Shown here: piece after piece, positions 9,759 to 41,805 of the stretch | Layout: every line of letters begins with the position of its first letter | How positions within the stretch are numbered: position 1 is the first letter of the stretch | Origin: Neglectibacter sp. X58 | GTDB taxonomy: Bacteria > Bacillota > Clostridia > Oscillospirales > Acutalibacteraceae | DNA length: 64,000 nt | Assembly (NCBI RefSeq): GCF_009936035.1 | Contig: NZ_QWEO01000003.1 | Coordinates: 1 to 64,000 of the forward strand | Direction of reading: 5' to 3' | Position numbers and translations under genes: made by a program | The notes under the pieces: generated by a model | Database searches by the model: none | What the model was told of the DNA's origin: nothing | What the model saw: only the letters and a program-made list of their open reading frames with translations

Positions 9759-9768
9759 ACTCCCACTC
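9759..9768. repeat. Attachment core att1 (A/B boundary), ACTCCCACTC
   Basis: A one-base variant of the guaA 3'-end core ATTCCCACTC. Element-end sequences lie on both sides: GTTGCAA repeats and hairpin to the left, GTTATC repeats to the right. It is read as the left attachment site of element B. Confidence 0.65.
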
Positions 9769-9837
9769 GACAACTACTAATCAATTTTGTTTAGAGATTA
9801 TTATTTGTTGTGTATACAGTTCTTTCGATTATTTGAT

Positions 9838-9900
9838 GTATCCATATTATCCTGCCTATACGGGCTAATGTTATCATTTTGTTATCGGCATTGATAACAC
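9838..9900. promoter_or_regulatory. Left-end arm region of element B
   Basis: It contains TATCCATATTATCC, GCCTATACG, GTTATC at 9870 and 9881, and an inverted GATAAC at 9893. The same words in the same order and spacing recur at 32938-32998 inside the left end of element D. GTTATC pairs also lie inside the right ends of B (24771) and D (40196). These are likely arm-type integrase or excisionase binding sites. Confidence 0.65.
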
Positions 9901-9990
9901 TCGCTCTGCAACTGCGGATAATACTTTTGAAATTCTGCACATTTATTATAATCGATGAGATCTCTAATTGCAATAGTAAATCTTTATTTT

Positions 9991-10065
9991 TACGCACAAA
10001 TTCGAAAATTTGTGCGTATTTTGGCTTGTAAAAACAAAATTGATATGTTATAATAAATACGCACA
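9991..10065 (+). promoter_or_regulatory. AbiE promoter and operator
   Basis: A palindrome with 12-base arms (TACGCACAAATT and its complement, 9991-10018) stands just upstream of a promoter: TTGTAA at 10026, a 17-base spacer, TATAAT at 10049. A third TACGCACA lies at 10058. AbiEi proteins are known to repress their own operons by binding inverted repeats, so this is the expected operator. Confidence 0.7.
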
Positions 10066-10115
10066 CAGAAATGGTAATGCTGTGCTTGAATTATTTGATT
10101 AAAGCAGGTGAACGA

Positions 10116-10721
10116 ATGGACAATCAAAAACTTGCCAAAGAAGTGATTACAACAAAAGGCGGAATCGCAAAATCGGCTGATTTTGTTGCTGCCGGTATGC
10201 GGTCTGCGCATGTTGTAAATTTGTGTAATAGCGGTTTTCTTGAACGTGTACGACACGGTTATTACCGTCTTGCAGATATACAGGAAATATCAGAAGCCCG
10301 GCTCATCTCTACACTCATTCCAAAAGGAATTGTCTGTGTAGAGTCAGCTTTGTTTCACTATGGATATAGTGACTTTACCCCAAGAAAATGGTCGATAGCC
10401 GTTCCACGTTCCATGTCAAGAACGAAACTTGAAGTAGATGATCTATCGCTTCAAGCCTATTATGTGCCGCCGGAGCTTTATGAGTTGGGTAAAACAACAG
10501 ATGATTTTGACGGTGTTACTCTATCTGTTTACGACCGTGAACGCACAATTTGCGATTGCTTTAAATACCGTTCCAGACTTGATAATGAAATGTTCAGCAA
10601 GGCGCTTAATGCCTATACGAATGATACAAATAAAAATCTGCAAAATCTTTCTGCGTATGCTAAAAAACTCAGGGTTTATAAAAAAGTTACAGAACTGATG
10701 GAGGTACTGCTCAATGGCTGA
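10116..10721 (+). CDS. abiEi: AbiEi-type antitoxin/transcriptional repressor
   Basis: A 201-residue antitoxin of the type IV AbiE toxin-antitoxin and abortive phage infection system. The N-terminal winged-helix (AKEVITTKGGIAKSADF, then GFLERVRHGYYRL) is followed by the AbiEi C-terminal region (VCVESALFHYGY, RTICDCFKYRS). The start is set at 10116 because AGGTGA stands just upstream. The gene overlaps the toxin by eight bases. A palindromic operator precedes it. It is AT-rich compared with the mobile backbone to its left, consistent with imported defence cargo next to the left end of element B. Confidence 0.85.
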   Translation: MDNQKLAKEVITTKGGIAKSADFVAAGMRSAHVVNLCNSGFLERVRHGYYRLADIQEISEARLISTLIPKGIVCVESALFHYGYSDFTPRKWSIAVPRSMSRTKLEVDDLSLQAYYVPPELYELGKTTDDFDGVTLSVYDRERTICDCFKYRSRLDNEMFSKALNAYTNDTNKNLQNLSAYAKKLRVYKKVTELMEVLLNG

Positions 10722-11610
10722 TATTGCTGCATCCGTGCTCGCAAGATTGAAAAATAAAGCAAAAGAAAGCGGACGAAGCTATCAGCTTTGCCTGCAACTC
10801 TTCTGCCAAGAAGAATTCTTGCGTCGATTGGAAAAATCACAATATGCGGAAAATCTTGTACTGAAAGGCGGATTGTTCATCTATTCTATTACCGATTTTG
10901 ATAGCCGTGTGACGGTAGATGTTGACTTTCTTCTTCGGAAAGTTCCCAATACTCCTGAGCAGTTGCGGGCAGTAATAGAAACAATCATTTCCACGCCTAC
11001 AGATAACGATTTTGTATCCTTTGAAATTAAAGACATTGCTCCTATTGCCGTTGCAAAAAAGTACGCCGGCATCGGAGTTTCTCTTGTGGCTCGAATTAAA
11101 AATACAAAAACGCCGTTCAGTATTGATTTTGGCGTGGGTGATGTCATAGTACCAAAGCAGGAAAAACGAAAAATCCCCACTCAGCTTGATGATTTTACAT
11201 CACCGACAGTAAATACCTATTCTCTTGAAACGACGATAGCCGAAAAGATTGACGCTATCCTAAGTCTCATGGAATTTTCGAGCAGAATGAAAGACTATTA
11301 CGATATTTATTATCTTGCTAATAAATTTAATTTTGACGGCACAGTGCTGACCGAAGCACTGAGAAAAACATTTGAAAACCGTGGACATACCTTTACGACA
11401 GATCAGTTCGAGCAGGTTATGGCCTTTGACAGCGATGACGCCATGCAGAAGAAGTGGAAAGCATTTTGCCGAAAGATTGATACAAAGACCGATGATTACG
11501 GTACTGTATTAAAAACCATAAAGACATTTTTAACAAAGCCGTTTACATCGGCAGTAGAAGGCAAAAAATTCATTAAACAATGGTCTGCTGCCAATAGCGA
11601 GTGGATGTAA
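10714..11610 (+). CDS. abiEii: AbiEii-type nucleotidyltransferase toxin
   Basis: A 298-residue member of the AbiEii/AbiGii toxin family, nucleotidyltransferase-fold enzymes that arrest growth on phage infection (studied members act on tRNA or nucleotides). The fold motifs are visible: LVLKGG near residue 51, then VDVDFLL as the metal-binding acidic pair, then IDFGVGD, and a C-terminal ETTIAEKIDAI with MKDYYDIYYL. It overlaps its antitoxin and ends 14 bases before the restriction gene. It appears full length. Confidence 0.85.
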   Translation: MADIAASVLARLKNKAKESGRSYQLCLQLFCQEEFLRRLEKSQYAENLVLKGGLFIYSITDFDSRVTVDVDFLLRKVPNTPEQLRAVIETIISTPTDNDFVSFEIKDIAPIAVAKKYAGIGVSLVARIKNTKTPFSIDFGVGDVIVPKQEKRKIPTQLDDFTSPTVNTYSLETTIAEKIDAILSLMEFSSRMKDYYDIYYLANKFNFDGTVLTEALRKTFENRGHTFTTDQFEQVMAFDSDDAMQKKWKAFCRKIDTKTDDYGTVLKTIKTFLTKPFTSAVEGKKFIKQWSAANSEWM

Positions 11611-11624
11611 TTCAGGAGGATATT

Positions 11625-13490
11625 ATGAACAGGTTTGAAATTATAAATAGAATCGGTGACAGATACCATATCGGTAATACTGAAAGTGGCGAATTTAGTT
11701 ATGCTCAAGCTTTAAAATCTGTTGGGAAAGATATTAAGGATTATCAAAAAGGAACCTCTGGAACACAACATCAGTATCTTGATCTTCGTTTTGAAAATGA
11801 GCGTTTAGCTGTTTTAATAGAAACAAAAAACAGGTTTAGCAAATGGGATAAAGCAAAAATACAGACTCAATTACAAGATTATGTGCGCTTTGAGAAGGCA
11901 TATTCAGACAAAAAGATTGTAGCTATTCTTGCCGAAATCGATGGTGACGAAGTATGGGTTTGGTATGGCCAATCAGTTATTATTGATGATGAACACCGAA
12001 TGGAAGAAGAAACTGTACTTCGATCGTTTGAAGAATATGAGAATCTATGCTTTGGTAGAGTAAATGACAAAATTAAGGTTGTTGACTCTATCAAGACGCT
12101 TAATGAAAAACTTCATTCTGATGGTATTAACGAGAAATTACGTAGCCAATTTGTTGGCACTTGCCTTCTCGCACTAAAAAATGGACTCGTATACCAAGAT
12201 GTTAAAGAAACGCTTAATCCTAAAACTGGAAAGAAAATATCACCAGAAAAGGTTATTCTAAAAAATATCAAAGATGTCTTAGAGGGGTTGCTTACTCGTG
12301 GCGGTGACTTAAATAAGGCAGGTAAACTTGCGGTTTTAAACAATAAAGTTCTTGGGGATCAAGATGTTACAAGTCTTACTTATGCAGAACTTAAGGATAT
12401 TTTAAAATTTATTGACGATAATGTTGTGCCATATATAAATGACAAAAGTACTGCGGGACAAGATTTGCTGAACTTGTTCTTTACTACATTTAATAAATAT
12501 GTTGGAAAGTCTGATAAAAATCAAGCATTTACACCTGACCACATTTGCGATTTTATGAGCAAGGCCGTTGGCGTTAATAAGAATTCTCGTGTTTTGGATC
12601 CTTGTTGCGGAAGTGGTGCATTTCTTGTTAGGGCAATGACCGACGCTATGGATGATTGCGATACTGAGGAAGAACGTGAAGAAGTAAAGAAGAATCAAAT
12701 TTTCGGCATAGAATATGAAGAGGGTGCATATGGCCTCTCCTCTACCAATATGCTAATTCACGGAGACGGAAACTCAAATGTCGTTCAAGACTCAATGTTT
12801 AAGCGTGCGAAATGGATTGCCGATAACAACATAAACATTGTTTTGATGAATCCTCCTTATAACGCCACCAAGAAATGTTGTGATCCTGATTACACAAAGA
12901 ATTGGGATGCCAAGAAAAAGGAAGATCCCTCCAAAGGTTTGCATTTTGTAGAGTGGGTAGCTCGCCATGTTCCGTCCACCTGCCAAATGGCAGTATTACT
13001 CCCTATGCAAGCTGCTATTGGTAATAGTGGTGATGTGAAAACATTCAAAAAGAAAATGCCTGACAACTATACTCTTGATGCTGTTTTTTCGCTTCCGACA
13101 GAGATGTTTTATCCTGGTGCTGCAGCAGTTGCTTGTTGTATGATTTTTGATCTTTCTCAAAAACACGAAAAAGCAAACAAAGATACTTTTTTCGGTTATT
13201 TTAAAGATGATAAATTCATCAAGCGTAAAGGGTTAGGCCGCATTGAAAGAACAGATATAGACGGCAATAGTTTATGGGCAAAAACGAAAGAACAATGGTT
13301 GACATTATATAAAAACAAGCGGGAGGTTCCCGGTCTTTCAGTAATGCATAAAGTGACTTGGCAAGATGAATGGCTTGCGGAAGCCTATATGGAAACAGAT
13401 TACAGTACATTGTCATCAAATGATTTCCAAAAGGTTCTAAATGATTATTTATCCTATCTTGTCAAGGAGGGAGAAGTATATGAATCTTGA
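11625..13490 (+). CDS. Type IIB (BcgI-like) restriction-methylation subunit
   Basis: 621 residues. The N-terminal ~130 residues resemble the HsdR N-terminal nuclease fold, with LDLRFENERLAVLIETKNRF carrying the D..ExK pattern. Residues from about 290 on are an N6-adenine methyltransferase, with LDPCCGSGAFLVRA (AdoMet binding) and MNPPYNA (catalytic). Nuclease plus methylase in one chain, followed by a separate specificity gene and no HsdR, is the BcgI layout (A subunit about 637 residues). The start at 11625 follows AGGAGG. The specificity gene start overlaps its end by 11 bases. A type I methylase with a lost HsdR is less likely because of the fused nuclease-like domain. Confidence 0.75.
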   Translation: MNRFEIINRIGDRYHIGNTESGEFSYAQALKSVGKDIKDYQKGTSGTQHQYLDLRFENERLAVLIETKNRFSKWDKAKIQTQLQDYVRFEKAYSDKKIVAILAEIDGDEVWVWYGQSVIIDDEHRMEEETVLRSFEEYENLCFGRVNDKIKVVDSIKTLNEKLHSDGINEKLRSQFVGTCLLALKNGLVYQDVKETLNPKTGKKISPEKVILKNIKDVLEGLLTRGGDLNKAGKLAVLNNKVLGDQDVTSLTYAELKDILKFIDDNVVPYINDKSTAGQDLLNLFFTTFNKYVGKSDKNQAFTPDHICDFMSKAVGVNKNSRVLDPCCGSGAFLVRAMTDAMDDCDTEEEREEVKKNQIFGIEYEEGAYGLSSTNMLIHGDGNSNVVQDSMFKRAKWIADNNINIVLMNPPYNATKKCCDPDYTKNWDAKKKEDPSKGLHFVEWVARHVPSTCQMAVLLPMQAAIGNSGDVKTFKKKMPDNYTLDAVFSLPTEMFYPGAAAVACCMIFDLSQKHEKANKDTFFGYFKDDKFIKRKGLGRIERTDIDGNSLWAKTKEQWLTLYKNKREVPGLSVMHKVTWQDEWLAEAYMETDYSTLSSNDFQKVLNDYLSYLVKEGEVYES

Positions 13491-14637
13491 TACTGCTAAA
13501 TGGAAATTGTTTAATTTTGTAAAGATTTTTGACATAAAAAAAGGGTTCTATAATAAGAAACCCGAATCGTCCGGCGTTGGAACAATTCCTTTTTTAGGTG
13601 CAACAGATAGCAACAATGGCGTTACCGAACATTATACATACGAAGAAATAGAATCATCATCAAAAACAGGAGATGGTTCTAATGAATCAATAGAACGCAA
13701 AATATTTCCTGCCAACGCAGTATGTGTTACAAATAATGGTTCTGTTGCGTATGCATATTATCAAAATAAGCCATTTACCTGTAGTCACGATGTAAATCCT
13801 TTATATTTGTTAAACGGAGAATTTAATGAATATACAGGAATGTTTGTTGCTGCTGTTATTATGTACGATAGATATCGCTGGGGATATGGAAGGAAATGGC
13901 GTCCTGAAAGAATGATAAATTCTCAGTCGCGATTGCCGATTGTGTGTGACGAGCAGGGGCTTCCGATAATTGACGCTACATATAAATATTCAAGAGAAGG
14001 ATTTACACCCGATTGGGAGTGGATGGAAAATTATATAAAAACATTACACCACAAACCGCTAACGACACAAGTAATCACTCAATCAGATGTTAATTTGAAT
14101 ACAACTGATTGGAAAGAATTTCTATTGCATCGTATTATGAAAGCAGGTATGGGAAATGGCATAGATGCTGTTTTAACTACGAGCGATAATCCTAAATATA
14201 ACTATGTATCTCGTGACAGCAATGGTAATGGTGTTGTTGGTTTTGTTGATGAAATAGAGGGAGAAGAACCATTTCCTGCAGGGACAATGTCATTAGCATT
14301 AGGTGGCAGTTTCTTGGGTTCTTGTTTTATTTAAAAGAAACCTTTCTATACCGCACAAAATGTTGCTGTTTTACAAGAAAAAGTCCCACTATCGAACCAC
14401 ACCAAACTATTCATCGCCACTTTAATTAGAAACGAATGTAAAATAAAATACCAAGCTTTTGGGAGAGAACTTAATGCTCATTTTCGCAAGGATTTTACCA
14501 TCAAATTACCCGTTAAACACGATGCGAATGGTGTTGTATATGATGAAACACACGAGTTTTCTGATGAAGGATTCATCCCCGATTGGGAGTGGATGGATAA
14601 CTATATGAAATCCTTGCCGTATAGTGATAGAATATAA
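13480..14637 (+). pseudogene. Type IIB/HsdS-like specificity subunit with in-frame TAA
   Basis: The DNA-recognition partner of the preceding gene. Two target-recognition halves are visible, each closing with a similar sequence: GFTPDWEWMENYIKTL in the first and GFIPDWEWMDNYMKSL in the second. The frame is interrupted by TAA at 14332-14334, after SLGSCFI would continue as KKPFYTAQNVAV; the frame is kept on both sides, so one base change (CAA to TAA fits) explains it. Total length would be about 385 residues, near BcgI B. With the stop, only the first half would be made, so the system is probably inactive unless read through. Confidence 0.78.
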
Positions 14638-14650
14638 AAAGAGGTATCGT

Positions 14651-15288
14651 ATGTGGAAAAAATTCAAATGGGATATGTTTGTTACTTCTTTTATTCCCCT
14701 ATGGATATCAATCGTTATTGTTGATGTTTGGACTATTGTCTGTTTTATCTTAGAGAACTGGAATAGGAAGGGAGCGCTTTCTGACAATTTGATAAACGTA
14801 TTGTATGGTAATTGTATTCAACTCGTGAGCATTGCTGTAATATCCATTTTGGTTCTCGTCAGTATTATTGGGATAAACTCTTTCCTGACAAGAAATTGGT
14901 TAAGAATAAAAAGCATCTTCCTGAAGGCAAGATTGAAAAAGCAACGAAAGCTAACAAACTGTCCTCTGAGTTTTTACTTGCATATATTTTGCCGATGATA
15001 GCTTTTGACTTTGGCAATCCGCAAAACTTAGTATTATTTATAATCTATTTTTCGGTATTGGCTTATCTTTGTATCAGAAACAACAATATCTATACGAATA
15101 TTCTCTTGGAATTCAAAGGATATCGTATATATACCTGCGATTTGACTTGCAAAGTTTTAGATGATCACACCTACCACGACAGTATTGTCATCAGCAAAAG
15201 CGACCTAACGCAAGAAGAAGGTAACGATGTGCCTTACTGGGATTTTGAAAACTATATTTATATCACAGCAAATAGGGGTGGAAAATAA
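14651..15288 (+). pseudogene. kwaA: KwaA-like Kiwa membrane protein, frameshifted
   Basis: A membrane protein of the Kiwa anti-phage system. The first frame gives two membrane segments (FVTSFIPLWISIVIVDVW and IQLVSIAVISILVLVSIIG). The second frame, from about 14890, gives KANKLSSEFLLAYILPMIAFDFG and further segments (LVLFIIYFSVLAYLCI), then a cytosolic tail ending in YWDFENYIYI. A loss of one base near 14880-14930 separates them. No canonical slippery heptamer is seen. The start at 14651 follows AGAGG. The TAATG overlap with the next gene keeps the two-gene Kiwa arrangement. Confidence 0.7.
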
Positions 15289-16235
15289 TGAGCAAGGAAG
15301 TATTAAAAAGTATTTGCACATCAGCACAGAAAGATAGCTATAGCTGGGCTCTATATTTTTTCAAAATCGACAAAAGGGCAAAGCAACCGTTCAAGGTAAA
15401 TAAAGTTAGGTTCAAAAACGATACCTATCTTTTGCAGTATGCAAAAAATCTTTTAAGTACCACTGAAACTTTTCAGATTGACCAGATCAGCGAGGTACAG
15501 GATTATGACGGCGAAAACAGTAAAGTATCTTGTGATAAGCTGCTATTAACGAACGAGCTTATTTCGGAACAATGGGAACTATTTTCGCAAGCAGTTGCAG
15601 CATCATCTGATCAGAAAATTGACGGTAAAATAAACGGTTACATATTGTGTGGACAACCTTCGGGACACGGAGACAAAGCTGTAACTTTCGTTAAAGTAGC
15701 AAATCCGATTACAAAATTAACAAATAAAAAGTCGGTCGTTTTTTCATCGACTGCTAACGATGAATTGGATTTAATAACTGATGATGTTTGCAGACTATAT
15801 TTGACAGTTGATTTTATTGCCTACAATGATGTTATGTACATTTTTAACCATACGTTTGAGACGGTTTTTAATCTTGAAAAAACAATGGCAAAAGTTAAGC
15901 AGCATGCAATAGAAGAAATAGCTGGTACAAATGTGTTTAGCGATATTGGTATTTTCAAGTCTTTGGCCTCGAAATATAAATCATCTCGCACATTTATTAC
16001 GCTCAAACCGGAAAGAATTAACCGAGTCAAGAACAAGCGAAGCAGAAAAGCAGTTGCTGATATGCTACATTTACCTCTTGATGCCAACGGTAACTTTGCT
16101 ATTACAACGGCAGAAGAAGCGTCCATTCTGATACGCTACCTATGTTTCAAGATATTCCAAGACAACGAAACAAAAGATGTATTGGAAGCCAATACTGTGA
16201 CAAAACTTAGCATTGAGCATTCTTCTCCCCAATAA
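15288..16235 (+). CDS. kwaB: KwaB-like Kiwa effector (DUF4868)
   Basis: 315 residues matching the DUF4868/KwaB family: VDFIAYNDVMYIFNHTFETVF in the central part, and a C-terminal region with NGNFAITTAEEASILIRYLC. In Kiwa, KwaA senses phage at the membrane and KwaB binds DNA and stops late transcription or replication. It overlaps kwaA by TAATG. It is full length, but its partner is frameshifted. A strong hairpin follows. Recognition is from family pattern and gene order. Confidence 0.72.
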   Translation: MSKEVLKSICTSAQKDSYSWALYFFKIDKRAKQPFKVNKVRFKNDTYLLQYAKNLLSTTETFQIDQISEVQDYDGENSKVSCDKLLLTNELISEQWELFSQAVAASSDQKIDGKINGYILCGQPSGHGDKAVTFVKVANPITKLTNKKSVVFSSTANDELDLITDDVCRLYLTVDFIAYNDVMYIFNHTFETVFNLEKTMAKVKQHAIEEIAGTNVFSDIGIFKSLASKYKSSRTFITLKPERINRVKNKRSRKAVADMLHLPLDANGNFAITTAEEASILIRYLCFKIFQDNETKDVLEANTVTKLSIEHSSPQ

Positions 16236-16313
16236 ACTCATTAAAAATGAGCTTGACTTGAAATGTACAGTTTTTTCTGTGAACGTTATTAACGAACTTT
16301 TAGCTAATCAAAC

Positions 16314-16359
16314 CGAAAACGGCGGCAGAGAGTTTTATATCTCCCTGCCGCCGTTTTCG
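16314..16359. terminator. Bidirectional terminator after kwaB
   Basis: Perfect 15-base arms, CGAAAACGGCGGCAG and its complement, with A and T runs at the outer ends. It serves the kwaB operon from the left and the tnpV remnant from the right. Confidence 0.8.
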
Positions 16360-16360
16360 A

Positions 16361-16582
16361 TTAGTTATAAATCAAATCAGTATTTACAATCTCCATTGCC
16401 ATGCTACGGATATTATTCATTCTCTGCACCCATTCAAACTGATTATCTGCCTTTAGCTGTTCCGTCACACCCTCACGCTCTGTCATCTGCTTTACCAACC
16501 GAGAGAACATTTCCTCTGCCTGCTTGTCAATGTCAGCAAGGTAACTATTCAGCTTACCGCTTGTGAGCAGAGTTAGCTCTAC
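16361..16582 (-). pseudogene. TnpV C-terminal fragment
   Basis: The minus strand encodes about 74 residues of the TnpV transposon-encoded protein: LTSGKLNSYLADIDKQAEEM, then ADNQFEWVQRMNNIRSMAMEIV, ending LIYN before the stop at 16361-16363. The N-terminal part is cut at about 16582. TnpV travels with Tn4451-like and Tn1549-like elements, so it marks a lost element between the defence cargo and the following ICE remnants. Confidence 0.75.
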
Positions 16583-16756
16583 TAATCAATCTGCCCAGCG
16601 GCAGAAAAGAAAAAAACCGCTGCTGGGCAGGCCGATTTTCTATGCCTGTTTGCTCCATGTGGCGGTTTTAAGAGATTAAAGCCGCCGTTCTTTTTTCTCC
16701 ATAGAGAGCGACGCGGTAACGCTGACAGATACGGCGGCTGATAGGAGGCAGCCGCC

Positions 16757-16885
16757 ATGAGGCGCATACCCATTCGACAAAATCTGACGAGGCTTGACCC
16801 GTCAAAAAAAGCCCGTCCTCCGCCTGGGGACATTCTGGCTTCGAGAATGAACTATACACAGCTACAAAGTGCAATTTTGTTCTGA
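16757..16885 (+). CDS. Small leader peptide of a Tn1549/Tn916-type regulatory region
   Basis: 42 residues, MRRIPIRQNLTRLDP to TQLQSAILF, with AGGAGG seven or more bases upstream. A strong hairpin with a T run (16891-16919) follows at once. A short basic ORF followed by an attenuator ahead of a sigma-like gene is known from conjugative transposons. It may couple translation to transcription of the downstream genes. No enzyme motif is present. Confidence 0.55.
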   Translation: MRRIPIRQNLTRLDPSKKARPPPGDILASRMNYTQLQSAILF

Positions 16886-16890
16886 TTTTT

Positions 16891-16919
16891 CGCCCGGTAG
16901 GTCTGCGACCTGCCGGGCG
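16891..16919 (+). terminator. Attenuator-like terminator
   Basis: CGCCCGGTAGGT pairs with ACCTGCCGGGCG around CTGCG, followed by ATTTTTG. Its place between the small ORF and the sigma-like gene fits transcription attenuation. Confidence 0.7.
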
Positions 16920-17066
16920 ATTTTTGTCGTTTCCTACGGTCTGCGCCGATCAGGAAAAATTATTTTCGCAAAGGGGGCTTTTAGCGGGTAGCAGACGGCG
17001 TTGCCGGTGTCATGTTAGCGGAAAGGGAGAGAACCACCACCATCCCCAACGAAAGGGGGTGAGAAG

Positions 17067-17258: not shown

Positions 17259-17261
17259 ACT

Positions 17262-34231: not shown

Positions 34232-34246
34232 GTTCGGGCTCCTTTC

Positions 34247-35458
34247 TCACATGTGGCCTATAACTCGTTGGCTACACATCTCTACAATGTAGTCATTAAC
34301 CTTTTGCCGAAATTCCAATTCGTAGCTTTTTAGGATAATCATATTAGAAGGTACATTTTTCAACTCATTTGTACCTGTTGCTTTTTGTAAAATAAGCACC
34401 AAAAAACTACAATTTCTTTTTGCCCCTGCGTCGCTAAGTAGCCTTATTGCCTGTTCTGGTGTTTCATTTACCTTCTGTATTTTAATTGCAACTGGAGCAT
34501 CTAAATAATGCTTTTTCAAAAACGCATCTATTCCTTTGTTACGTTGAACGATATCACATTCAAACTGGCTCAGAATTGCAAGTTCAGCTGTTGTTTTTGT
34601 TTGATATGGGATTACTCCAACCTTTAACAATGTGGATTCTGTTTTGATTGGATTAGAAAGTCTCTCTTGGCACAACTTAATTGCATCTGTATTTACATCA
34701 ATTCCGATAAAATTACGCAACATCAGCTTTGCGGCAACTAAAGTAGTACCACTGCCACAAAAAGGGTCTAAAATCAAATCACCTTCATCTGTGCTTATGC
34801 GAAGGATTCTTTGGAGAAGTTCAACAGGTTTTTGGGTTGGATACCCGACACGCTCTCTCGCTTTTGGATTTAGGAAAGGAATATCCCATACATCGGACAT
34901 GGGAACCCCTCGTTTCTCCTTAGCCATAACGATATTTCCACTTTTATCTCTCTTATAACTGGCCTTGCCCACTGCATTTCGCTCTCTTTCCTGTAGTATC
35001 TGATCCAGATTCGTGGTGGGTGAATATTCTCCATAAATAACATTAAACTTAAAATTTGGAGACTTTGAATAGAAAAAAATTGTTTGATGTCCTGCTAATA
35101 GTCCCTTTTTCGAATTTGACCAGCGTTTGTATGTCCAAATGATTTCACTTCTAAAATTATCTTCTCCAAATATCTCGTCTAGTAATATCCTAATATAATG
35201 GGAAGAAGAAGTATCGCAGTGCAAAAAGATAGAACCTGTATCTTTCAAAACTCGGTGCATTTCTGAAAGTCGCTCTTTAAGAAATAATAAATAAGATTGA
35301 CGTGAATCCCAGACGTCAGAAAAACCGTAAACATTTCCATTGGAACCCCGAGACATTTGGTGTTTCTGCGTAAAGAAAGGTGGATCTAAGTAAATCATAT
35401 CCACAGTTTCTTTTGCCAAGGTTTTTATACCATTCAAACAATCATCATGGATTAGCAT
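34247..35458 (-). CDS. DNA N6-adenine or N4-cytosine methyltransferase of the ApaLI-like system
   Basis: 403 residues. Class beta order: catalytic YLDPPFFTQK near the N-terminus, and the AdoMet-binding LDPFCGSGTTLVAA at about 220, then a C-terminal extension of about 170 residues. VGYPTQKPVELLQRI is typical of the D12/N4-N6 family. The ATG at 35458 is preferred; it is eight bases after the endonuclease stop, whose end (AGGGAG) supplies the ribosome binding site. It protects host sites from the upstream endonuclease. Confidence 0.85.
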   Translation of the reverse strand: MLIHDDCLNGIKTLAKETVDMIYLDPPFFTQKHQMSRGSNGNVYGFSDVWDSRQSYLLFLKERLSEMHRVLKDTGSIFLHCDTSSSHYIRILLDEIFGEDNFRSEIIWTYKRWSNSKKGLLAGHQTIFFYSKSPNFKFNVIYGEYSPTTNLDQILQERERNAVGKASYKRDKSGNIVMAKEKRGVPMSDVWDIPFLNPKARERVGYPTQKPVELLQRILRISTDEGDLILDPFCGSGTTLVAAKLMLRNFIGIDVNTDAIKLCQERLSNPIKTESTLLKVGVIPYQTKTTAELAILSQFECDIVQRNKGIDAFLKKHYLDAPVAIKIQKVNETPEQAIRLLSDAGAKRNCSFLVLILQKATGTNELKNVPSNMIILKSYELEFRQKVNDYIVEMCSQRVIGHM

Positions 35459-35465
35459 AGTATTA

Positions 35466-36092
35466 TCATTGCTCCCTAGAAATCGCAATCTTTTCAAGGA
35501 TTTCAAGCAGGTCAATACCAGTTAGTTCATGGATATACTGCCATGCACTATCCCCATAAAAATACTTTCCACCTATCCCTTGATACAATGTTTCAAGTGT
35601 TTCTTGAATCCTTATTGCTTGAGTACGTTGTGGATAGTAAAACATTACTCTCACTGGGGTATAACCCTTTTCTCGAATAACCTTCACCCGTGTATGTTCT
35701 TTTGTTATATGATCGCCATCTGTAGTTGCATCTCTCCATTTGATTTCGTGAGCAGCATTTCCAACTAAGCAATCAATTTCAAATGTTTTGGGGCGATTTC
35801 CTAATGTATTGGGTATTTTCACTTTTGCAGAATCAGGAAACTTATGCTTGATGCAGGTAATAGCCGCTTCTTCTAAAAATGCACCAGCGTATTTATATAA
35901 AAACCGCCCCTTGTTTTGATAAAGGTCAATTAAATGCCCCTCATCATTTGTAACACCAAGTACACGATATAAAAGATAATGAGAAGTGTCGTCATCTTCC
36001 ATTTCTTTTTCCCTTATATCAACTTGCTTTTTTAGTTCTGTAGCATACTTATCTGCAAGCCTTTTAATGGCCATAAAAACATCCTGATCCAT
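35466..36092 (-). CDS. ApaLI-like type II restriction endonuclease
   Basis: 208 residues. The diagnostic stretch is KTFEIDCLVGNAAHEIKWRD followed by ATTDGDHITKEHTRVKVI, then VRVMFYYPQRTQAIRIQETL. ExD...ExK (EID, EIKW) is the PD-(D/E)XK catalytic core. This is the ApaLI family; ApaLI cuts GTGCAC, so that is the first specificity to consider, not proven here. First gene of the D cargo operon. Full length, AT-rich relative to the backbone. Confidence 0.8.
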   Translation of the reverse strand: MDQDVFMAIKRLADKYATELKKQVDIREKEMEDDDTSHYLLYRVLGVTNDEGHLIDLYQNKGRFLYKYAGAFLEEAAITCIKHKFPDSAKVKIPNTLGNRPKTFEIDCLVGNAAHEIKWRDATTDGDHITKEHTRVKVIREKGYTPVRVMFYYPQRTQAIRIQETLETLYQGIGGKYFYGDSAWQYIHELTGIDLLEILEKIAISREQ

Positions 36093-36248
36093 ACAATTCC
36101 CCTATCCTGTCTATTAATGTTTATAGTATACCATACTTTCCAGGGCATATCAAGCTACAAAAGAAATAGCGATAGAGACTATATAGAGTAACTTGTGCTA
36201 AAACTTTTATAGAGGATGGTAGCAGACCTACCATTCTCTATAAAGAAA

Positions 36249-36539
36249 TCATTTCTCCGCCTGTATTCCTCGCGCCTTCGCCCAAGCGCTGGCCTTGCTA
36301 CGCCGTTCCTCGCTGTACGGAGCAGTTAGTCGGAAACTAAGCCGTCCCTTCTCAATCTCGAACGTCAGCCCTCCCTTCCCATCATCATCGGTCTGTCTGC
36401 ACAGATCGGGGTACTGCTGGGCGTATGTTCCCAGGCGCTTCTTCAAGTCCGTGTTATGGGTCTGTACCTCAATGATGCTGCTCTGCTCATCAAAAAAGAT
36501 ACCTGTTGTCTTTTGCCGCTTTGTAAGCCCTGTTCGCAT
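36249..36539 (-). CDS. Conserved protein of MobV mobilisable elements (copy in D)
   Basis: 96 residues, MRTGLTKRQKTTGIFFDEQS then THNTDLKKRLGTYAQQYPDL and LSFRLTAPYSEERRSKASAW. Homologous to 29664-29939. AGGAGG precedes the ATG. An inverted repeat (TGATGGG...CCCATCA, about 36602-36651) lies between it and the relaxase gene. Function unknown; it always sits directly after mobV here. Confidence 0.7.
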   Translation of the reverse strand: MRTGLTKRQKTTGIFFDEQSSIIEVQTHNTDLKKRLGTYAQQYPDLCRQTDDDGKGGLTFEIEKGRLSFRLTAPYSEERRSKASAWAKARGIQAEK

Positions 36540-36682
36540 AAAACCTCCTTATTTTTGAAATATTTCCTCGCTTCTTGAGTTGAAAAAGTAATGTGATTTT
36601 TTGATGGGAAGCGTTCCAACGAAGCTGTGTTCACTTGAAACGCTCCCATCAGTTTTTTCAAAATTTCCCGGCTCTTGACTGA

Positions 36683-37897
36683 TTACCGTTCTACGGCATT
36701 TTTCCGTTGCCGCTGCACCTTGGGCGACTCCACCTGTTCTGCTTGGAGAACCTTGGAGATGAACGACATCACCCGCTCTGGTGCTTTCTTGACGGCAACG
36801 AGGAAGTCGTTTACCTGCTCTTTCAATTCCTCATACCGCCGTTTCCATATCTGAGCATCCCGTCGGGCGGATTTCAGGTCGCGCTGCAAGTCTCTAATGG
36901 TGGTATCCGCAGCTACCCCCTTTTGGGCAAGCTGTTTCAAATCCTCTGCTTCCTGCTGGGAAAACTCCACCTTGCCCATCAGCGTCCTACGGCCCATATT
37001 GTCGATCTCTGCAAAGGTTGCTGCTGTTCCTTTTTGGACTTCGATTTTCTGCTCGACTTTCTGGAGAGCCTTCTCTTTTTTCTCAACCTGACGCTTCAAA
37101 ACTGCCAATCTTTCCTGCTCACGTTCCGTCTTAAACTGCGCCACAGTCAGATGTTCCTCGGAACTGCCACGCTCACCCCGCTTCACATCGGTATAGCCAG
37201 CGGCCCGCATAGCGTTGAAAAAATCATCCTGGAGAACGCTGTATGATTTTCGTAACACCGGCTTGCCGTTCTTTTGCAGGATAGGTTTTCCTTGATCGTC
37301 CATTGCCGGGAGGGACTTCCACTTTTTACTGCTGCTCACCTGAGTGATTGTCTCCTTAACTGTGCCGACCAGAGATTTGTCTTTACACCGCTTTGACCAC
37401 AGCACCTGTTTCTCCACCACAGGGATATAAACAACATGGAGGTGGTAGTGGTATACATCCCGTTCCAGTGCCTCCGACATGGCCCGGTTGCGCTCGTCGG
37501 CGTGCATGACTGCCGATAAGATAAACTGCTCCCCGCCCACAATTTCTATTGCACTTTTGTAGGCATCGGTGTAGAATTGTCTTGCAAAATCGTAGCCACC
37601 GTGGTTATCGAAATAAGCTGAGTTCACGTCGAAAATCAATTCACCATAGAGGCAAGCGTCATCTTTCAGTCCCCTGGTGGAGATCACCTTCTCAGCCTTC
37701 ATCTGAGCAAACATTTCCGCATAGCTACCAGTTGGCCTCTTAAAATGAATGTTCAAAGCGGTTCGCTCCGGCACAATATCTGGATTGATATAGGACTCCT
37801 TTTCCCTCTCGTTGTGTCGCTGCGTATTGCTGATTTGTGTTCTTGTCAGATTTGCGTTTCTGACACTGGTACGGTCAATCCCGTCGTTTCTTGCCAT
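36683..37897 (-). CDS. mobV: MobV/Pre-type relaxase
   Basis: 404 residues. It nicks one strand at oriT and pilots DNA to the recipient, using the conjugation machinery of a helper element. Visible motifs: N-terminal RTSVRNANLTRTQISNTQRH, the central AERTALNIHFKRP, and the metal-binding motif VMHADERNRAMSEALERD then VYHYHLHVVYIPV with the HxH pair. The C-terminal half is coiled coil (KRQVEKKEKALQKVEQKIEV). An oriT-like site lies just upstream at 37950-38011. Complete, unlike the remnant in element C. Confidence 0.88.
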   Translation of the reverse strand: MARNDGIDRTSVRNANLTRTQISNTQRHNEREKESYINPDIVPERTALNIHFKRPTGSYAEMFAQMKAEKVISTRGLKDDACLYGELIFDVNSAYFDNHGGYDFARQFYTDAYKSAIEIVGGEQFILSAVMHADERNRAMSEALERDVYHYHLHVVYIPVVEKQVLWSKRCKDKSLVGTVKETITQVSSSKKWKSLPAMDDQGKPILQKNGKPVLRKSYSVLQDDFFNAMRAAGYTDVKRGERGSSEEHLTVAQFKTEREQERLAVLKRQVEKKEKALQKVEQKIEVQKGTAATFAEIDNMGRRTLMGKVEFSQQEAEDLKQLAQKGVAADTTIRDLQRDLKSARRDAQIWKRRYEELKEQVNDFLVAVKKAPERVMSFISKVLQAEQVESPKVQRQRKNAVER

Positions 37898-37949
37898 TGT
37901 ACTCCTTTCCAGAATTTGCGGATTTGGTACCCTTCGGGGGACGGGGAGG

Positions 37950-38011
37950 CACTTCTGCGGAAGTGTAATAACCCACTATGACACTTTCATCCCTGCGGGC
38001 TGCAAAGTGTC
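37950..38011 (-). other. Candidate oriT of element D
   Basis: A small hairpin CACTT-CTGCGG-AAGTG (37950-37965) is followed by TAATAACCCACTATG and a second pair GACACTTT/AAAGTGTC (37980-37987, 38004-38011). On the minus strand ATAGTGGGTTATTACACTT resembles the MobV nick region ATAGTGTGTTATACTTTA. It lies 50 bases before the relaxase start, where MobV origins normally are. Confidence 0.65.
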
Positions 38012-38121
38012 GTGGGCTCTCCGAGGGGGTATGGGGGCTTTGCCCCCGGCAACTGCGGTTGCCTCCCCCAGCAGGGCCGCCCTTTGAAAAGGGCACCCTG
38101 CACCCCGCCTAAACTTTGCCC

Positions 38122-38242
38122 GTGACGGTCGTGACGATGGTGACGATACTTTCGATACCAGCCCCACTGTCTAAACTATCGTCACAACCGTCACAATCGT
38201 CACGCCGCTCCAACGTGAGTGCCATTTTGTCGCCCACGTTGG
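38122..38242. other. Iteron array, candidate replication origin of element D
   Basis: Three head-to-tail 9-mers GTGACGNNN (38122-38148) face three inverted copies NNNCGTCAC (38177-38203) across a 28-base spacer. A further palindrome CCAACGTG/CACGTTGG lies at 38210-38242. The array stands immediately after repA and before oriT. Iterons beside a RepA-type helicase are the usual form of an oriV. Confidence 0.65.
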
Positions 38243-38266
38243 AGCCTGCAAAAACCACCGACTAAC

Positions 38267-39424
38267 TTACTGTCCTGCTTTTTCAACAAGCATCAGTTGA
38301 ATGAATCGTCCGTCATGGTTACGACTACTCTCATATTTGATGCTGTTCTCATTAAGTAGCCTTCCAGCGTTTACATTCAGCCGCATGGTAAGCTTGTTAG
38401 GCTTTATATCCACTCCCAGCGCGGTCACCAATTCAGTCGCGGTGCCGCTCCATGACTTATCTCTCACCACCAATGCTTCCACCGCTTCAAGCACCGGATC
38501 GGGCGGCTCTATCCACTGTTCCGCCTCCATCCGCTCAAGCGTCCAGGTTAGCCGCTCCCTATCCTTGGTGAGATAGAACCGTTGGTCTTGCTGATCGCGT
38601 CCCACCACATCCAGGGTAGCAGTGCCAGCCGTCCGTTTTTCCTTCTGAAGAAGAAAGGCCCCGTCCGCTGCCCCCGACAGGCCGTTGGTGCCGGAGATCA
38701 TATCAAACTTATCATCGGCCTGCTGTTTCCGGGTATGATGTACCAGCAGGAGGCAGACACCGCAATCGTCAGCGAGGCGTTTCAGCTTTCCCACTACCTC
38801 ATAGTCGTTGGCATAGCTGTACTTATCCCCGCCAGCCTCTCGGATTTTCTGAAGGGTATCAATGATAATCAGCTTGGTATCAGGGTGTTCCTGCACGAAT
38901 CGCTTTAGCTGCTCTTCAAGCCCGATGCCGACCTGCTTGGCATGAATCGCAAAGAGAAGGTCATTGGCGCCCTCCGTGCCGAACATCCGGTAAAGGCGTT
39001 CCTGCAAGCGGCGGTGATCGTCCTCCAGAGCCAGATAGAGGACAGTTCCCTTGTGAGCAGGATAGTCCCATAGAGGGAGGCCAGTGCTGACGTGGTAGGC
39101 AAGCTGAGCCATCAGGAAGGATTTGCCCACTTTGGGCGCACCTGCAAAGAGGTAGGTCCCAGGGTAGAGCAGACCGTCAATGACGGGCGATCTGCTCTGG
39201 TAGACATTCTGGTAAAGCTCATTCATGGAAACGGTAGGGAGATAGGCAGGGTCGCTCATACGCTGCATTTGCCGCAACATTTCTCGGTAATTTTTCTCAG
39301 GGGGATTGTTTTCAGCCCCTTCCTCTGGTATACTTGCGATAGGTGTTTGAGAACTGGGCTGTTCCCCGTCTGCGCCAACAGACGGAAGCGGAACAGTCCT
39401 TTTCGTCTCTTTGGAATCCATCAA
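38267..39424 (-). CDS. RepA-like hexameric helicase/AAA ATPase
   Basis: 385 residues. A RecA-fold ATPase similar to RSF1010 RepA: Walker A in FAGAPKVGKSFLMAQLAY, LYLALEDDHRRLQERL, Walker B LIIIDTLQKI, and LLLVHHTRKQ. The first 60 residues are a low-complexity linker (PLPSVGADGEQPSSQ). It probably unwinds the iteron region just downstream and lets the excised element replicate. It lies between mobC and mobV in one operon. Confidence 0.82.
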   Translation of the reverse strand: MMDSKETKRTVPLPSVGADGEQPSSQTPIASIPEEGAENNPPEKNYREMLRQMQRMSDPAYLPTVSMNELYQNVYQSRSPVIDGLLYPGTYLFAGAPKVGKSFLMAQLAYHVSTGLPLWDYPAHKGTVLYLALEDDHRRLQERLYRMFGTEGANDLLFAIHAKQVGIGLEEQLKRFVQEHPDTKLIIIDTLQKIREAGGDKYSYANDYEVVGKLKRLADDCGVCLLLVHHTRKQQADDKFDMISGTNGLSGAADGAFLLQKEKRTAGTATLDVVGRDQQDQRFYLTKDRERLTWTLERMEAEQWIEPPDPVLEAVEALVVRDKSWSGTATELVTALGVDIKPNKLTMRLNVNAGRLLNENSIKYESSRNHDGRFIQLMLVEKAGQ

Positions 39425-39428
39425 TCTA

Positions 39429-39749
39429 TCAAACCTCCTTCATGCCGTTCATGATGGCAGCGATCATCCGAATGGTGTCCAGCAGTTCGCCGTCCACGCC
39501 AGCCCCGTCCCCAATTCGCCGCAGTTCTCCCAGGACGGCGGCAAGCTGGTCACGCAGGGCCTTGTAAACCCTGGGATTGCCCTGCACCACAATGTCCTGG
39601 TTCAGTAGCCGCCGGGTGATGTACTCCTGCTTGGTTAGCCCGGACAAGCGGACGGCAATCTCAAGCTGTTCGTCCTCCTCCGGCGACACCCGGAATGCCA
39701 CGGTCTTGTTTCTCCAGCGGTTGTGATTGTCCAAATTCTTAGCCGACAT
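39429..39749 (-). CDS. mobC: MobC-like relaxosome accessory protein
   Basis: 106 residues. A ribbon-helix-helix N-terminus (KTVAFRVSPEEDEQLEIAVR, LSGLTKQEYITRRLLNQD) is followed by a helical MobC region (LRDQLAAVLGELRRIGDG). Such proteins bind oriT and help the relaxase melt the nick site. It starts within the stop of the integrase remnant and precedes repA and mobV. Confidence 0.78.
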   Translation of the reverse strand: MSAKNLDNHNRWRNKTVAFRVSPEEDEQLEIAVRLSGLTKQEYITRRLLNQDIVVQGNPRVYKALRDQLAAVLGELRRIGDGAGVDGELLDTIRMIAAIMNGMKEV

Positions 39750-39895
39750 TATGCTCCCGTCCTTTCAAAGTCCAGCTTGTCCGCCATCTCCGTCTGCTTC
39801 GACGGAAACAGGTGGGCGTAGCGGTAAGTGATTTCGATACTCTCATGGCCTACCCGGTCGGCAATCGCCACAGCGGAGAAGCCCATGCTTGAAAT
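39749..39895 (-). pseudogene. Tyrosine integrase, last 45 codons (element D)
   Basis: The reading GFSAVAIADRVGHESIEITY then RYAHLFPSKQTEMADKLDFE is the C-terminus of a tyrosine integrase including the nucleophile region (TYRYAHLFP). The rest was removed by a deletion ending near 39897, which also took the first part of the divergent XRE regulator. Element D therefore has no integrase of its own. Confidence 0.78.
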
Positions 39896-39899
39896 GTTC

Positions 39900-40061
39900 T
39901 CCAGGTGGGCCAATGAAGCCAAGAAGCTGGAAGCTGGGGAAATCACCAGGGAGGAGTACGACCATTGGCGTTACACATATCCCGCAGTTGAGGCCCAGCG
40001 CACAAGGGATGAGCTTGACGCACTCCGGGCAAAGCGCAAGGCGGCGGAGACAGAGGAATAG
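39900..40061 (+). pseudogene. XRE regulator, C-terminal fragment (element D)
   Basis: AKKLEAGEITREEYDHWRYT then EAQRTRDELDALRAKRKAAE. It matches the end of the element B regulator (LSSEEISREDYNNWRYHYPK). The helix-turn-helix is gone. The junction with the integrase tail shows that the int/regulator control region was deleted. Confidence 0.7.
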
Positions 40062-40068
40062 ACAGCAA

Positions 40069-40104
40069 AAAGCCCTTACCGACGTTGCCATCGGTAAGGG
40101 CTTT
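40069..40104 (+). terminator. Terminator at the right end of element D
   Basis: AAAGCCCTTACCGA and TCGGTAAGGGCTTT pair perfectly, followed by CTAATATGGATT, as in element B. Confidence 0.82.
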
Positions 40105-40195
40105 CTAATATGGATTTTGTCACCCACAAGCCGCAAAGGAACACTTTTCACCTGCAATCCACCGGGGATACAGAATGATACGGCCTATGGGGAGC

Positions 40196-40215
40196 GTTAT
40201 CAAATCGTTATCAAA
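40196..40215. promoter_or_regulatory. Right-end arm repeats of element D
   Basis: Two GTTATCAAA-type repeats in 20 bases, 60 bases before the attachment core, as at 24771 in element B. Confidence 0.65.
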
Positions 40216-40272
40216 AGAGGAGCGCAAAACCGTCTATTCGTTGTGCCGCAACGGGTTCAGGACTTCAAAAAC

Positions 40273-41805
40273 TCATTCCCACTCAATCGTAGCAGGCGGC
40301 TTGCTTGTCACGTCATACACCACCCGGTTGACGCCCTCTACCTCATTGATAATCCGGTTGGACACCTTTCCCAGCAGCTCATAAGGAAGGTGCGCCCAGT
40401 CGGCAGTCATGAAATCCGTGGTGGTGACAGCCCGCAGGGCCACAGTCACCCCGTAAGTACGGCCATCACCCATAACGCCTACGCTTCGGTTAGCGGTGAG
40501 CACCGCAAAATACTGGTTGATGTCCCGCTCCAAGCCGAAATTCGTCACTTCCTCCCGGAAGATGGCATCCGCGTCCTGCAAGAGCGCCACTTTTTCCTGG
40601 GTGATTTCCCCCATAATGCGCACAGCCAGCCCCGGCCCGGGGAAAGGCTGCCGCCATACCAGTGCCTCCGGGATGCCCAGCTCTATCCCCACCCGGCGCA
40701 CTTCATCCTTAAAGAGATCCCGCAGCGGCTCCACCAATCCTTCAAACTCCATGTCCTCTGGCAGGCCGCCCACATTGTGGTGGCTTTTGATAACCGCCGC
40801 TTCCCCGGTGCCGCTCTCCACCACGTCGGGGTAGATAGTGCCCTGGCAGAGGAAGTCCATTTTGCCCAGCTTCCGGGATTCTTCCTCAAACACCCGGATA
40901 AATTCCTCCCCAATAATCTTCCGCTTTTTCTCCGGATCGCTGACGCCCTGCAGCTTCTGGAGGAACCGCTCCCCGGCGTTGACGCGGATAATGTTCATGT
41001 CAAATTCCTTTTGGAAAACCTTCTCTACCAGGTCGCCCTCACCCTTGCGCAGCAGGCCATGATCCACGAAAATGCAGGTGAGGTTTTTCCCGATAGCCTT
41101 GTGTACCAGCATAGCCGCCACAGAAGAGTCCACGCCGCCGGAAAGGCCGCACAGCACCTTCTTGTCCCCAATCTGCTTTTTCAGGGCTTCCACTGTTTCT
41201 TGGGCAAAGGAGGCCATTTCCCAGTCTCCCTTGCAGCCGCAAATGGAATACAGGAAGTTTTCAAAAATTTTATTGCCAAACTGGGTGTGCTCCACCTCCG
41301 GGTGGAACTGCACCGCAAACAGCTTCTCCCCCAGGCTTTCCATGGCCGCAGCAGGACAGTGGGCACTGTGAGCCGAAGAGGCAAACCCAGCCGGAACCTC
41401 TGCGATATAGTCATTGTGGCTCATCCAGCACACGCTCTCCGGCACCCCTGCAAAGAGGGGGGATTCAGGGGCAAAGGAGGTCTGGGTTTTGCCGAACTCA
41501 TGCACCCCGCTTGCTTCCACCTTGCCGCCCAGCACCTGGGCCATCACCTGGGCACCATAGCAGATGCCCAGCACCGGCACCCCCAGTTTAAACACTTCCG
41601 GGCTGCACAGGGGCGCACCCTCAGCATACACGCTGTTGGGGCCTCCGGTAAACAGAATGCCTTTATAACCCCGCAGCTCCTCCGGGTCTGTCTTATAGGA
41701 ACGTATCTCGCAATACACCCGCAGATCCCGCACCCGCCGGGCGATAAGCTGGGCATACTGCCCGCCAAAATCCAGCACCACTACCTTCTCATGCGCCTTG
41801 CTCAT
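40273..41805 (-). CDS. guaA: GMP synthase (glutamine-hydrolysing)
   Basis: 510 residues. It converts XMP to GMP using ATP and ammonia from glutamine. N-terminal class I amidotransferase with Cys in [13 protein letters not shown] and His/Glu in [12 protein letters not shown] pyrophosphatase P-loop [13 protein letters not shown] at about 225; C-terminal dimerisation domain ending [11 protein letters not shown]. The ATG at 41805 ([16 protein letters not shown]) is chosen over longer readings because it fits the family length and has AAGGATG upstream. It is the anchor gene of the integration array. Confidence 0.96.
40275..40284. repeat. Attachment core att4 in the guaA 3' end, ATTCCCACTC
   Basis: The complement covers the first base of the stop codon and the last codons of guaA (GAG TGG GAA TGA). 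Integration here restores the end of guaA, which explains why the gene is intact. Copies at 32859 and 24850 are identical. Confidence 0.78.

What the first reader, a model, noticed from the sequence alone, without database searches (positions are those of the whole stretch)
9759..40284. Tandem array of three integrative elements at the guaA 3' end, delimited by four attachment cores
The last bases of guaA contain ATTCCCACTC. Identical copies stand at 24850 and 32859, and a one-base variant at 9759. Each is bordered by element-end signals, and the genes between them fall into three units with the same plan (cargo left, integrase/regulator switch right). This explains 30 kb as repeated insertion in one place, with the newest copies preserving guaA. 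The 3' end of guaA is a known target of genomic islands in other bacteria; a triple array bounded by 10-base cores and loaded with defence genes appears unusual.
Basis: partly seen in the sequence, partly recalled or inferred. Interest (0 to 1): 0.85.

Follow-up and report, generated by a model that had tools for sequence, protein, structure and literature searches.

The report
Stacked mobile elements behind guaA
At the end of one housekeeping gene (guaA) of a gut-type bacterium, at least four mobile DNA elements have landed one behind the other, and matching repeats at the two ends of each of the three fully visible ones mark its borders; stacking of this sort is known, but the variety of end repeats, and a tendency for neighbours to carry different ones, may be new.

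Summary
The 10-base core alone is weak evidence, but every core is flanked at near-fixed offsets by a pair of 7-base repeats with 11-base pitch, matching within each element: A (9759-24859) and C (32859-40284) carry GTTATC units, B (24850-32868) TGTAGCC units. A fourth element (Z, TGTTGCA units) ends at 9768 and runs off the contig. Relatives agree: a B-like end sits directly at guaA in G026, an A-like end in G009, a Z-like end in G088; a 91-98% identical B relative lies at guaA in Evtepia gabavorous; A and B stand in the other order in Bacterium D16-76; G007 versus G009 gives an empty-site comparison. Only B has a complete integrase, only C a complete mobilisation set. Best explanation: tandem accretion of guaA-specific integrative mobilizable elements, mostly decayed, a known kind of structure. 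Occupation is common in the family sample (33 of 77 guaA ends). Possibly new: many element-specific arm sequences and a deficit of same-arm neighbours (0 of 18 clear junctions, 4.5 expected, p 0.0025; 2 of 22, p 0.012, with ambiguous and targeted cases).

The parts
9759..9768 (+). core (one-base variant ACTCCCACTC) between Z and A
24850..24859 (+). core ATTCCCACTC between A and B
32859..32868 (+). core ATTCCCACTC between B and C
40275..40284 (+). core ATTCCCACTC = last codons of guaA (minus strand GAGTGGGAAT)
9659..9680 (.). arm repeat of element Z, TGTTGCA units, 11-bp pitch
   Evidence: the same kind of arm directly at guaA in G088
9869..9886 (.). arm repeat of A, guaA-distal end, TGTTATC units
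24770..24789 (.). arm repeat of A, guaA-proximal end, TGTTATC units
24959..24979 (.). arm repeat of B, guaA-distal end, TGTAGCC units
32769..32787 (.). arm repeat of B, guaA-proximal end, TGTAGCC units
32970..32988 (.). arm repeat of C, guaA-distal end, TGTTATC units
40195..40215 (.). arm repeat of C, guaA-proximal end, CGTTATC units
9759..24859 (.). element A (15.1 kb), int-defective; cargo AbiE, type IIG-like R-M, Kiwa-like genes, FtsX permease
   Evidence: A-like proximal 1.4 kb (92.5%) at guaA in G009, distal 1.85 kb (89.4%) in L076
24850..32868 (.). element B (8.0 kb), complete integrase; redox and two-component cargo
32859..40284 (.). element C (7.4 kb), int-defective; ApaLI-type R-M and a MobV-type mobilisation set
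10071..10721 (+). AbiEi-like antitoxin (A)
10714..11610 (+). AbiEii-like toxin (A)
11601..13490 (+). N6 methylase with type IIG-like matches (A)
13441..14334 (+). specificity-subunit-like protein (A)
14624..14998 (+). KwaA-like fragment (weak, 22.8 bits)
15288..16235 (+). KwaB-like protein
22359..22859 (-). tyrosine integrase fragment of A (matches residues about 106-276 of IntB, 57% identity)
23482..24024 (+). XRE-type regulator of A
30114..30494 (-). C-terminal remnant of the relaxase of B; about 2.67 kb present in L061, L062, L063 and L090 is missing at 30542-30544
30612..30869 (-). excisionase-like protein of B (ICEBs1 Xis model, 55.5 bits, below its cut-off of 100)
31020..31625 (+). XRE-type regulator of B
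31668..32741 (+). IntB: arm-binding, SAM-like and catalytic domains, complete
35466..36092 (-). ApaLI-like restriction endonuclease (C)
34247..35515 (-). DNA methylase N6/N4 (C)
33437..34231 (-). DUF3825 protein (C)
36683..37897 (-). MobV/Mob_Pre-type relaxase (C); Pfam above cut-off, NCBIfam MobV below its cut-off
38267..39424 (-). AAA_25 ATPase (C)
39429..39749 (-). NikA-like mobilisation protein (C)
39770..39983 (.). remnant of C's integrase C-terminus (39770-39910, minus) meeting a regulator C-terminus (39891-39983, plus)
40273..41805 (-). guaA (GMP synthase); its stop codon is completed by bases of C's end

Best explanation
The region is a tandem accretion of at least four integrative (mostly mobilizable, mostly decayed) elements whose tyrosine integrases target the last ten bases of guaA. 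Each integrase would bind the shared core GAGTGGGAAT through its core-binding and catalytic domains, and a pair of element-specific arm repeats (11-bp pitch, about 60-80 bp inside the guaA-proximal end and about 100 bp inside the distal end) through its N-terminal arm-binding domain. Integration duplicates the core and completes the guaA frame with the element's own bases, so the target stays usable and further elements can stack. B can probably still excise (complete Int, Xis-like protein) but has lost most of its relaxase. C keeps a mobilisation set but lost its integrase. A has a broken integrase and no recognised relaxase. No IntB-like integrase was found in the visible part of Z. Shown: boundaries, matched arms, A-, B- and Z-like ends alone at guaA elsewhere, the empty site in relatives, the gene lesions. 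Inferred: arm binding by Int, excision of B, order of insertion, mobilisation by a helper.
For: Matched 11-bp-pitch arms at the element ends. Of 77 guaA loci of genus and family (this genome included), 33 have such an arm 52-82 nt after guaA; pitches 8, 9, 10, 12, 13, 14 give 0, 0, 0, 1, 1, 1. In 138 sequences 16 cores have arms on both sides at pitch 11, none at 9, 10, 12 or 13. Of 12 elements with arms seen at both ends (listing, read by eye), 11 carry the same arm at both; the twelfth (G126) shares only GTACA. Of 57 loci with an IntB relative, 36 hold the GuaA C-terminus, 29 of these with arms; 9 others show a core with arms on both sides. B is 98.9-99.8% identical to L061 and L062 over 6.0 and 7.5 kb, in L063 (Evtepia gabavorous, at guaA) 91% over 2.3 kb and 98% over 4.9 kb, in L090 91-98%, while GuaA of L063 and L090 is 61% and 55% identical. 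A-like end at guaA in G009; A end followed by B in L076. Empty site: DNA after guaA in G007 continues after the last core of G009, 87.6% over 251 bp. Single-contig genomes G072 and G164 of one genus share 91% over 1412 bp beyond their elements.
Against: The outer flank of this genome's array is unknown (contig ends inside Z). No reads were available, so no circular junction was seen. The 10-mer core alone is at chance level genome-wide. In G164 no clean core stands immediately before the shared chromosome. Seven of 36 loci with IntB relative and guaA, all Lachnospiraceae, show no arm by my rule, and 6 of 57 loci show neither guaA nor a core with arms. The Z-type arm pair also occurs exactly on two other contigs of this genome (C99, C155) without a guaA-type core nearby, so such arms are not proof of a guaA element by themselves. 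The assembly is a 185-contig draft, so chimeric joins cannot be excluded, although boundaries of this design recur in other assemblies.
Confidence: 0.93

Rival explanations
1. One large island (an old ICE or composite island) that entered once and was later diversified; the internal cores are chance or relics rather than boundaries of separate arrivals.
For: The 10-mer is frequent by chance; conjugative transfer of ready-made CIME-ICE tandems is reported in the review PMC5704250 (passages read), so part of the array could have arrived together.
Against: A, B and C each carry their own arm pair. B is up to 99.8% identical to elements in other hosts, while the best A and C stretches are about 92% and 86%. 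A and B occur in the other order in L076, and B-, A- and Z-like ends occur directly at guaA.
Confidence: 0.05
2. The arrangement is an assembly artefact: several guaA-linked islands from different cells of a mixed sample joined at the shared core.
For: Draft of 185 contigs; a shared repeat at every junction is where assemblers can misjoin.
Against: The shared core is only 10 bp, shorter than usual assembly overlaps (recalled). Cores with arms on both sides occur in many other sequences, and the single-contig genomes G072 and G164 hold elements at the same site.
Confidence: 0.02

Closest known systems
Integrative and mobilizable elements in tandem accretion with decayed elements (CIMEs), described in streptococci (PMC5357655) and reviewed in PMC5704250 (passages of both read)
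   Different: Other hosts (Oscillospiraceae and neighbours); mixed arm sequences within one array. In the streptococcal survey nine tandems were at rpsI, rpmG or rplL and the last in a secondary site inside an IME.
Tn5801 and Tn5801-like islands at guaA (PMC4844618; passages read)
   Same: Insertion at the guaA 3' end with an 11-bp direct repeat as core.
   Different: Tn5801 is a Tn916-family-type element of 25 kb with a conjugation region; A, B and C are 7-15 kb, and no conjugation gene was named among the products that I searched.
ATE-1 of Trueperella pyogenes (table passage in PMC5704250)
   Same: MobV relaxase, tyrosine integrase, guaA 3' end.
   Different: Not compared by sequence here; Actinobacteria.
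Tyrosine integrases with arm-binding domains (PMC8138268, passages read; PDB 6emy matched by sequence, recalled to be the Tn1549 integrase)
   Same: Arm-binding, core-binding and catalytic architecture.
   Different: IntB matches that PDB chain only weakly (E 6.6e-10 over residues 63-266) and carries the Arm-DNA-bind_4 domain.

Membership tests
Integrative and mobilizable element (IME) | own integrase, complete | tested here: inconclusive
   met for B; not met for A and C
Integrative and mobilizable element (IME) | own relaxase or mobilisation genes | tested here: inconclusive
   met for C; B has only a relaxase remnant where L063 has the whole gene, 63% identical to C's; in A no stretch matched C's relaxase, AAA or NikA-like protein by tblastn at E 1e-5
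Integrative and mobilizable element (IME) | flanked by att sites at a specific target | tested here: met
   cores and arms
Integrative and mobilizable element (IME) | excises and is mobilised by a helper | not testable with these tools
   no reads, no bench work
CIME / decayed element in accretion | att sites kept, integration and transfer genes lost | tested here: inconclusive
   A: arms and cores kept, integrase broken, no mobilisation genes found; C: integrase broken but mobilisation genes kept, so C fits only in part
Tn5801/Tn916-type ICE | conjugation (T4SS) module | not tested
   no conjugation gene was named among the A, B and C products searched, but not every reading frame was searched and no search was made for conjugation models
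Prophage or satellite | phage structural genes | not tested
   no structural gene recognised among the products searched in Pfam; the PHROGs library was not used; two junction patterns found nothing in viral contigs

The most novel reading that the evidence does not exclude
The arm repeats act as an address or compatibility group. Elements sharing the guaA core but carrying different arm sequences, read by diverging arm-binding domains, can stack side by side without cross-excision, whereas same-arm neighbours are excluded or lost; the array order would then be shaped by integrase specificity, comparable to incompatibility groups of plasmids.
Probability: 0.3. Interest if true: 0.7.

Novelty: new member of a known kind. 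Interest (0 to 1): 0.5.

Why it matters
guaA appears as a heavily used insertion site in this bacterial family, and the arm-pair rule gives a simple way to propose element ends from sequence alone, even where integrases are gone. The many arm sequences beside diverging arm-binding domains are a natural data set for how integrases read their arm sites, and the deficit of like neighbours is a testable idea about how stacks are built and kept. Two of the three complete elements here carry defence genes, so such stacks may be places where defence genes collect.

Tried and rejected
Rejected: the 10-mer core as sufficient evidence. Rejected: a tRNA target (ARAGORN found none in the window). Tried without result: conserved chromosomal genes downstream of guaA across ten same-genus genomes (one search printed nothing, looser, printed shared frames that, as far as I recognised them, are element genes such as integrase, regulator and AAA), so the place of this genome's outer flank stays unknown; DNA after guaA in G025 gave only two short matches in G000. 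Tried: the other end of Z elsewhere in G000. My first pattern was mistyped by one base and found nothing; the corrected one found the window copy and two further exact copies near the starts of contigs C99 and C155, but no guaA-type core within two mismatches lies beside them, so Z's other end was not found.

Arm sequence against integrase N-terminal domain (24 non-redundant of 37 integrases): partial correlation controlling for the catalytic domain 0.54, permutation p 0.0002; but with one integrase per arm class (11) the N-terminal correlation is 0.28 (p 0.03) against 0.35 for the catalytic domain, so domain-specific co-variation is not established.

Neighbour test: arm classes were assigned by eye; pairs of units with one mismatch were counted as clear for L200, L203 and L204, and L197 and L229 were set aside as ambiguous. 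Clear junctions: 0 of 18 same, 4.5 expected, p 0.0025; with the two ambiguous ones 1 of 20, p 0.007; with two more from the targeted search 2 of 22, p 0.012; de-duplicated 0 of 16, p 0.003. A clear same-arm junction exists in L235. Two of the 32 places had no locus and were not examined there (one came in later as L234). Near-identical neighbours may be collapsed by short-read assembly, which would mimic avoidance. Junction patterns in viral contigs: none.

Integrase survey: of 21 guaA-proximal elements with at least 3 kb in view, 10 had a complete integrase within 6 kb, 3 a partial one and 8 none detected (in G164 an integrase stands at the far end instead), so integrase loss is frequent but not shown to be the rule.

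Literature: judged from titles and abstract starts, the listings show no paper on guaA stacks in Oscillospiraceae; passages of five papers were read. Absence from print is not claimed.
Full report
Check of the observation. The decamer alone is weak: with one mismatch, 8 sites against 3.66 expected in the window, and 9 exact sites in the genome against 8 for the reversed control. The element-end signals are the real evidence. Each core is flanked by direct pairs of 7-mers at exactly 11-bp pitch. There are nine such pairs in 64 kb, seven of them within 130 bp of the four cores; at pitches 8-10 and 12-20 none is near a core, and 200,000 random core placements never reached seven.

Anatomy. The arm units pair up within elements: GTTATC-type at both ends of A (9759-24859, 15.1 kb) and of C (32859-40284, 7.4 kb), TGTAGCC-type at both ends of B (24850-32868, 8.0 kb). 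Left of the 9759 core stands a fourth kind, TGTTGCA (9659-9680), so A is followed by another element, Z, whose body runs to the contig start. In guaA orientation G002 and both G008 elements show the order regulator, excisionase-like gene, integrase, NikA-like gene, AAA ATPase; L063 has an AAA gene and a relaxase beyond its integrase. B has a complete integrase with arm-binding, SAM-like and catalytic domains and an excisionase-like protein, but compared with Evtepia gabavorous (L063) it lacks about 2.67 kb holding an AAA gene (58% identical to C's) and most of a relaxase gene (63% identical to C's). C keeps NikA-like, AAA and MobV-type genes, but its integrase and regulator are reduced to C-terminal remnants that meet at about 39890-39910. 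A has an integrase fragment covering about residues 106-276. G009, whose element end is 92.5% identical over 1.4 kb, has a different deletion in the same gene, which suggests that the two lesions arose separately.

Cargo. A: AbiEi/AbiEii, a type IIG-like methylase with specificity-like protein, a weak KwaA-like fragment and a KwaB-like protein, and an FtsX-type permease. B: redoxin, NapH-like ferredoxin and a two-component system; PADLOC gave only weak domain-level matches. C: ApaLI-like endonuclease, DNA methylase and DUF3825.

Relatives. GuaA loci were taken from the genus (29 genomes searched, 22 with a guaA end in the fetched stretch) and from 60 places that I chose from the family list (127 of 150 genomes with a match), mostly high-scoring ones with DNA left beyond guaA. 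Of these 82, five with under 110 nt downstream were dropped (G011, G019, G139, G152, G176; two of them, G011 and G019, do show arms), leaving 77, this genome included. An 11-bp-pitch arm stands 52-82 nt after guaA in 33 of 77 (11 of 20 in the genus, 22 of 57 in the family); other pitches give 0 or 1 of 77. More than a dozen arm sequences occur, among them TGATAAC, TGATACT, TGATAGC, TGGCAAC, TGGCTAC, TGGCATT, CGTACTA, GGTACAC and TTGCAAC; the one in G122 may be chance. In 138 sequences (82 guaA loci and 56 of the 57 loci found with IntB; L111 dropped as the same contig as G026) 16 cores have arms on both sides at pitch 11 and none at pitches 9, 10, 12 and 13; one-sided cores number 84 at pitch 11 and 2, 0, 0, 2 at the others. 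One of the 16 (L103) looks doubtful. Of 12 elements with arms seen at both ends, 11 have the same arm (read); elements of L074 and L102, in which only one end showed an arm, are not counted.

IntB relatives. Of 57 loci, 36 hold the GuaA C-terminus, 29 of these with an arm and 7 (all Lachnospiraceae, 45-49% identical integrases) without; of the other 21, 9 show a core with arms on both sides, 6 a one-sided or doubtful core and 6 nothing. B is 98.9-99.8% identical in L061 (6.0 kb aligned) and L062 (7.5 kb), neither of which shows guaA in the stretch; in L063, directly at guaA, it is 91% over the 2.3-kb integrase end and 98% over 4.9 kb; in L090 91-98%. GuaA of L063 and L090 is only 61% and 55% identical, which points to horizontal transfer. 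In Bacterium D16-76 (L076; guaA not in the stretch) an A-like distal end (89.4% over 1850 bp, up to the core) is followed by a B-like element, the other order from here.

Empty site. G007 has no arm after guaA; its downstream DNA continues in G009 immediately after the last core (87.6% over 251 bp, starting 18-19 bases from the first core base in both). G072 and G164, two single-contig genomes of one genus, share 91% over 1412 bp beyond their elements, starting 6 nt after the distal core of G072 and 10.25 kb after the first distal core of G164, where no clean core is seen. In this genome the outer flank is off the contig, and DNA downstream of guaA in G025 gave only two short matches in it.

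Neighbours. From searches of 398 family genomes each, 24 TGATAAC ends (30 loci examined) and 21 TGGCAAC ends (24 loci) were verified; 18 have a clear next element, none of the same class, against 4.5 expected (p 0.0025); counting ambiguous and targeted cases 2 of 22 are the same and p is 0.012. Within this window A and C share an arm class but are separated by B. This is suggestive; assembly collapse of like neighbours is a possible cause.

Comparison with the literature. Passages of PMC5357655 and PMC5704250 describe IMEs at guaA and tandem accretion with decayed elements that kept att sites; PMC4844618 Tn5801-like islands at guaA with 11-bp repeats; PMC8138268 the arm-binding domain; PMC4701971 ICEs at guaA. 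The present array works like these accretions and is filed as a new member of that kind; A and C fail a defining IME feature (a complete integrase) and are better called decayed members. The range of arm sequences and the neighbour deficit were not met in the passages read.

Noticed in passing
window 1-9322: Z holds a truncated ParA and a ParB N-terminal part; beside ParB begins a run of large serine recombinase genes and pieces (1151-8253), with a second, longer ParA-type gene at 141-1049: it looks like another element inserted into parB of Z.
   Followed up: partly
window 29394-29657: A 264-bp insert in B, absent from L061, L062, L063 and L090, with 20-bp perfect terminal inverted repeats (29398-29417 / 29634-29653) and an 8-base overlap of the flanking matches in all four, which suggests a target duplication; MITE-like, single copy in this genome.
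   Followed up: partly
G000 contigs C99 (592-610) and C155 (1180-1198): Exact TTGCAACA arm pairs like Z's, behind a similar hairpin-like stretch but without a guaA-type core nearby: possibly related elements at another target.
   Followed up: partly
G008 array and guaA ends: The core has Trp and Phe versions (GAGTGGGAA, GAGTTCGAA); both occur within one array in G008, so insertions may rewrite the penultimate codon of guaA.
   Followed up: no
G009 (xis-int), G003 (int pieces about 12 kb apart), G016 (int not found near the regulator): Integrase genes at this site are broken in different ways in several relatives; in G009 the excisionase frame runs into the integrase remnant.
   Followed up: partly
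window 14624-15288: The KwaA-like reading frame next to KwaB overlaps a second frame (14812-15288) with no Pfam match; the KwaA-like gene may be broken.
   Followed up: no
window 19005-21197: A single frame joins a response-regulator receiver domain to an FtsX permease; probably a deletion product of a two-component/ABC transporter cluster.
   Followed up: no
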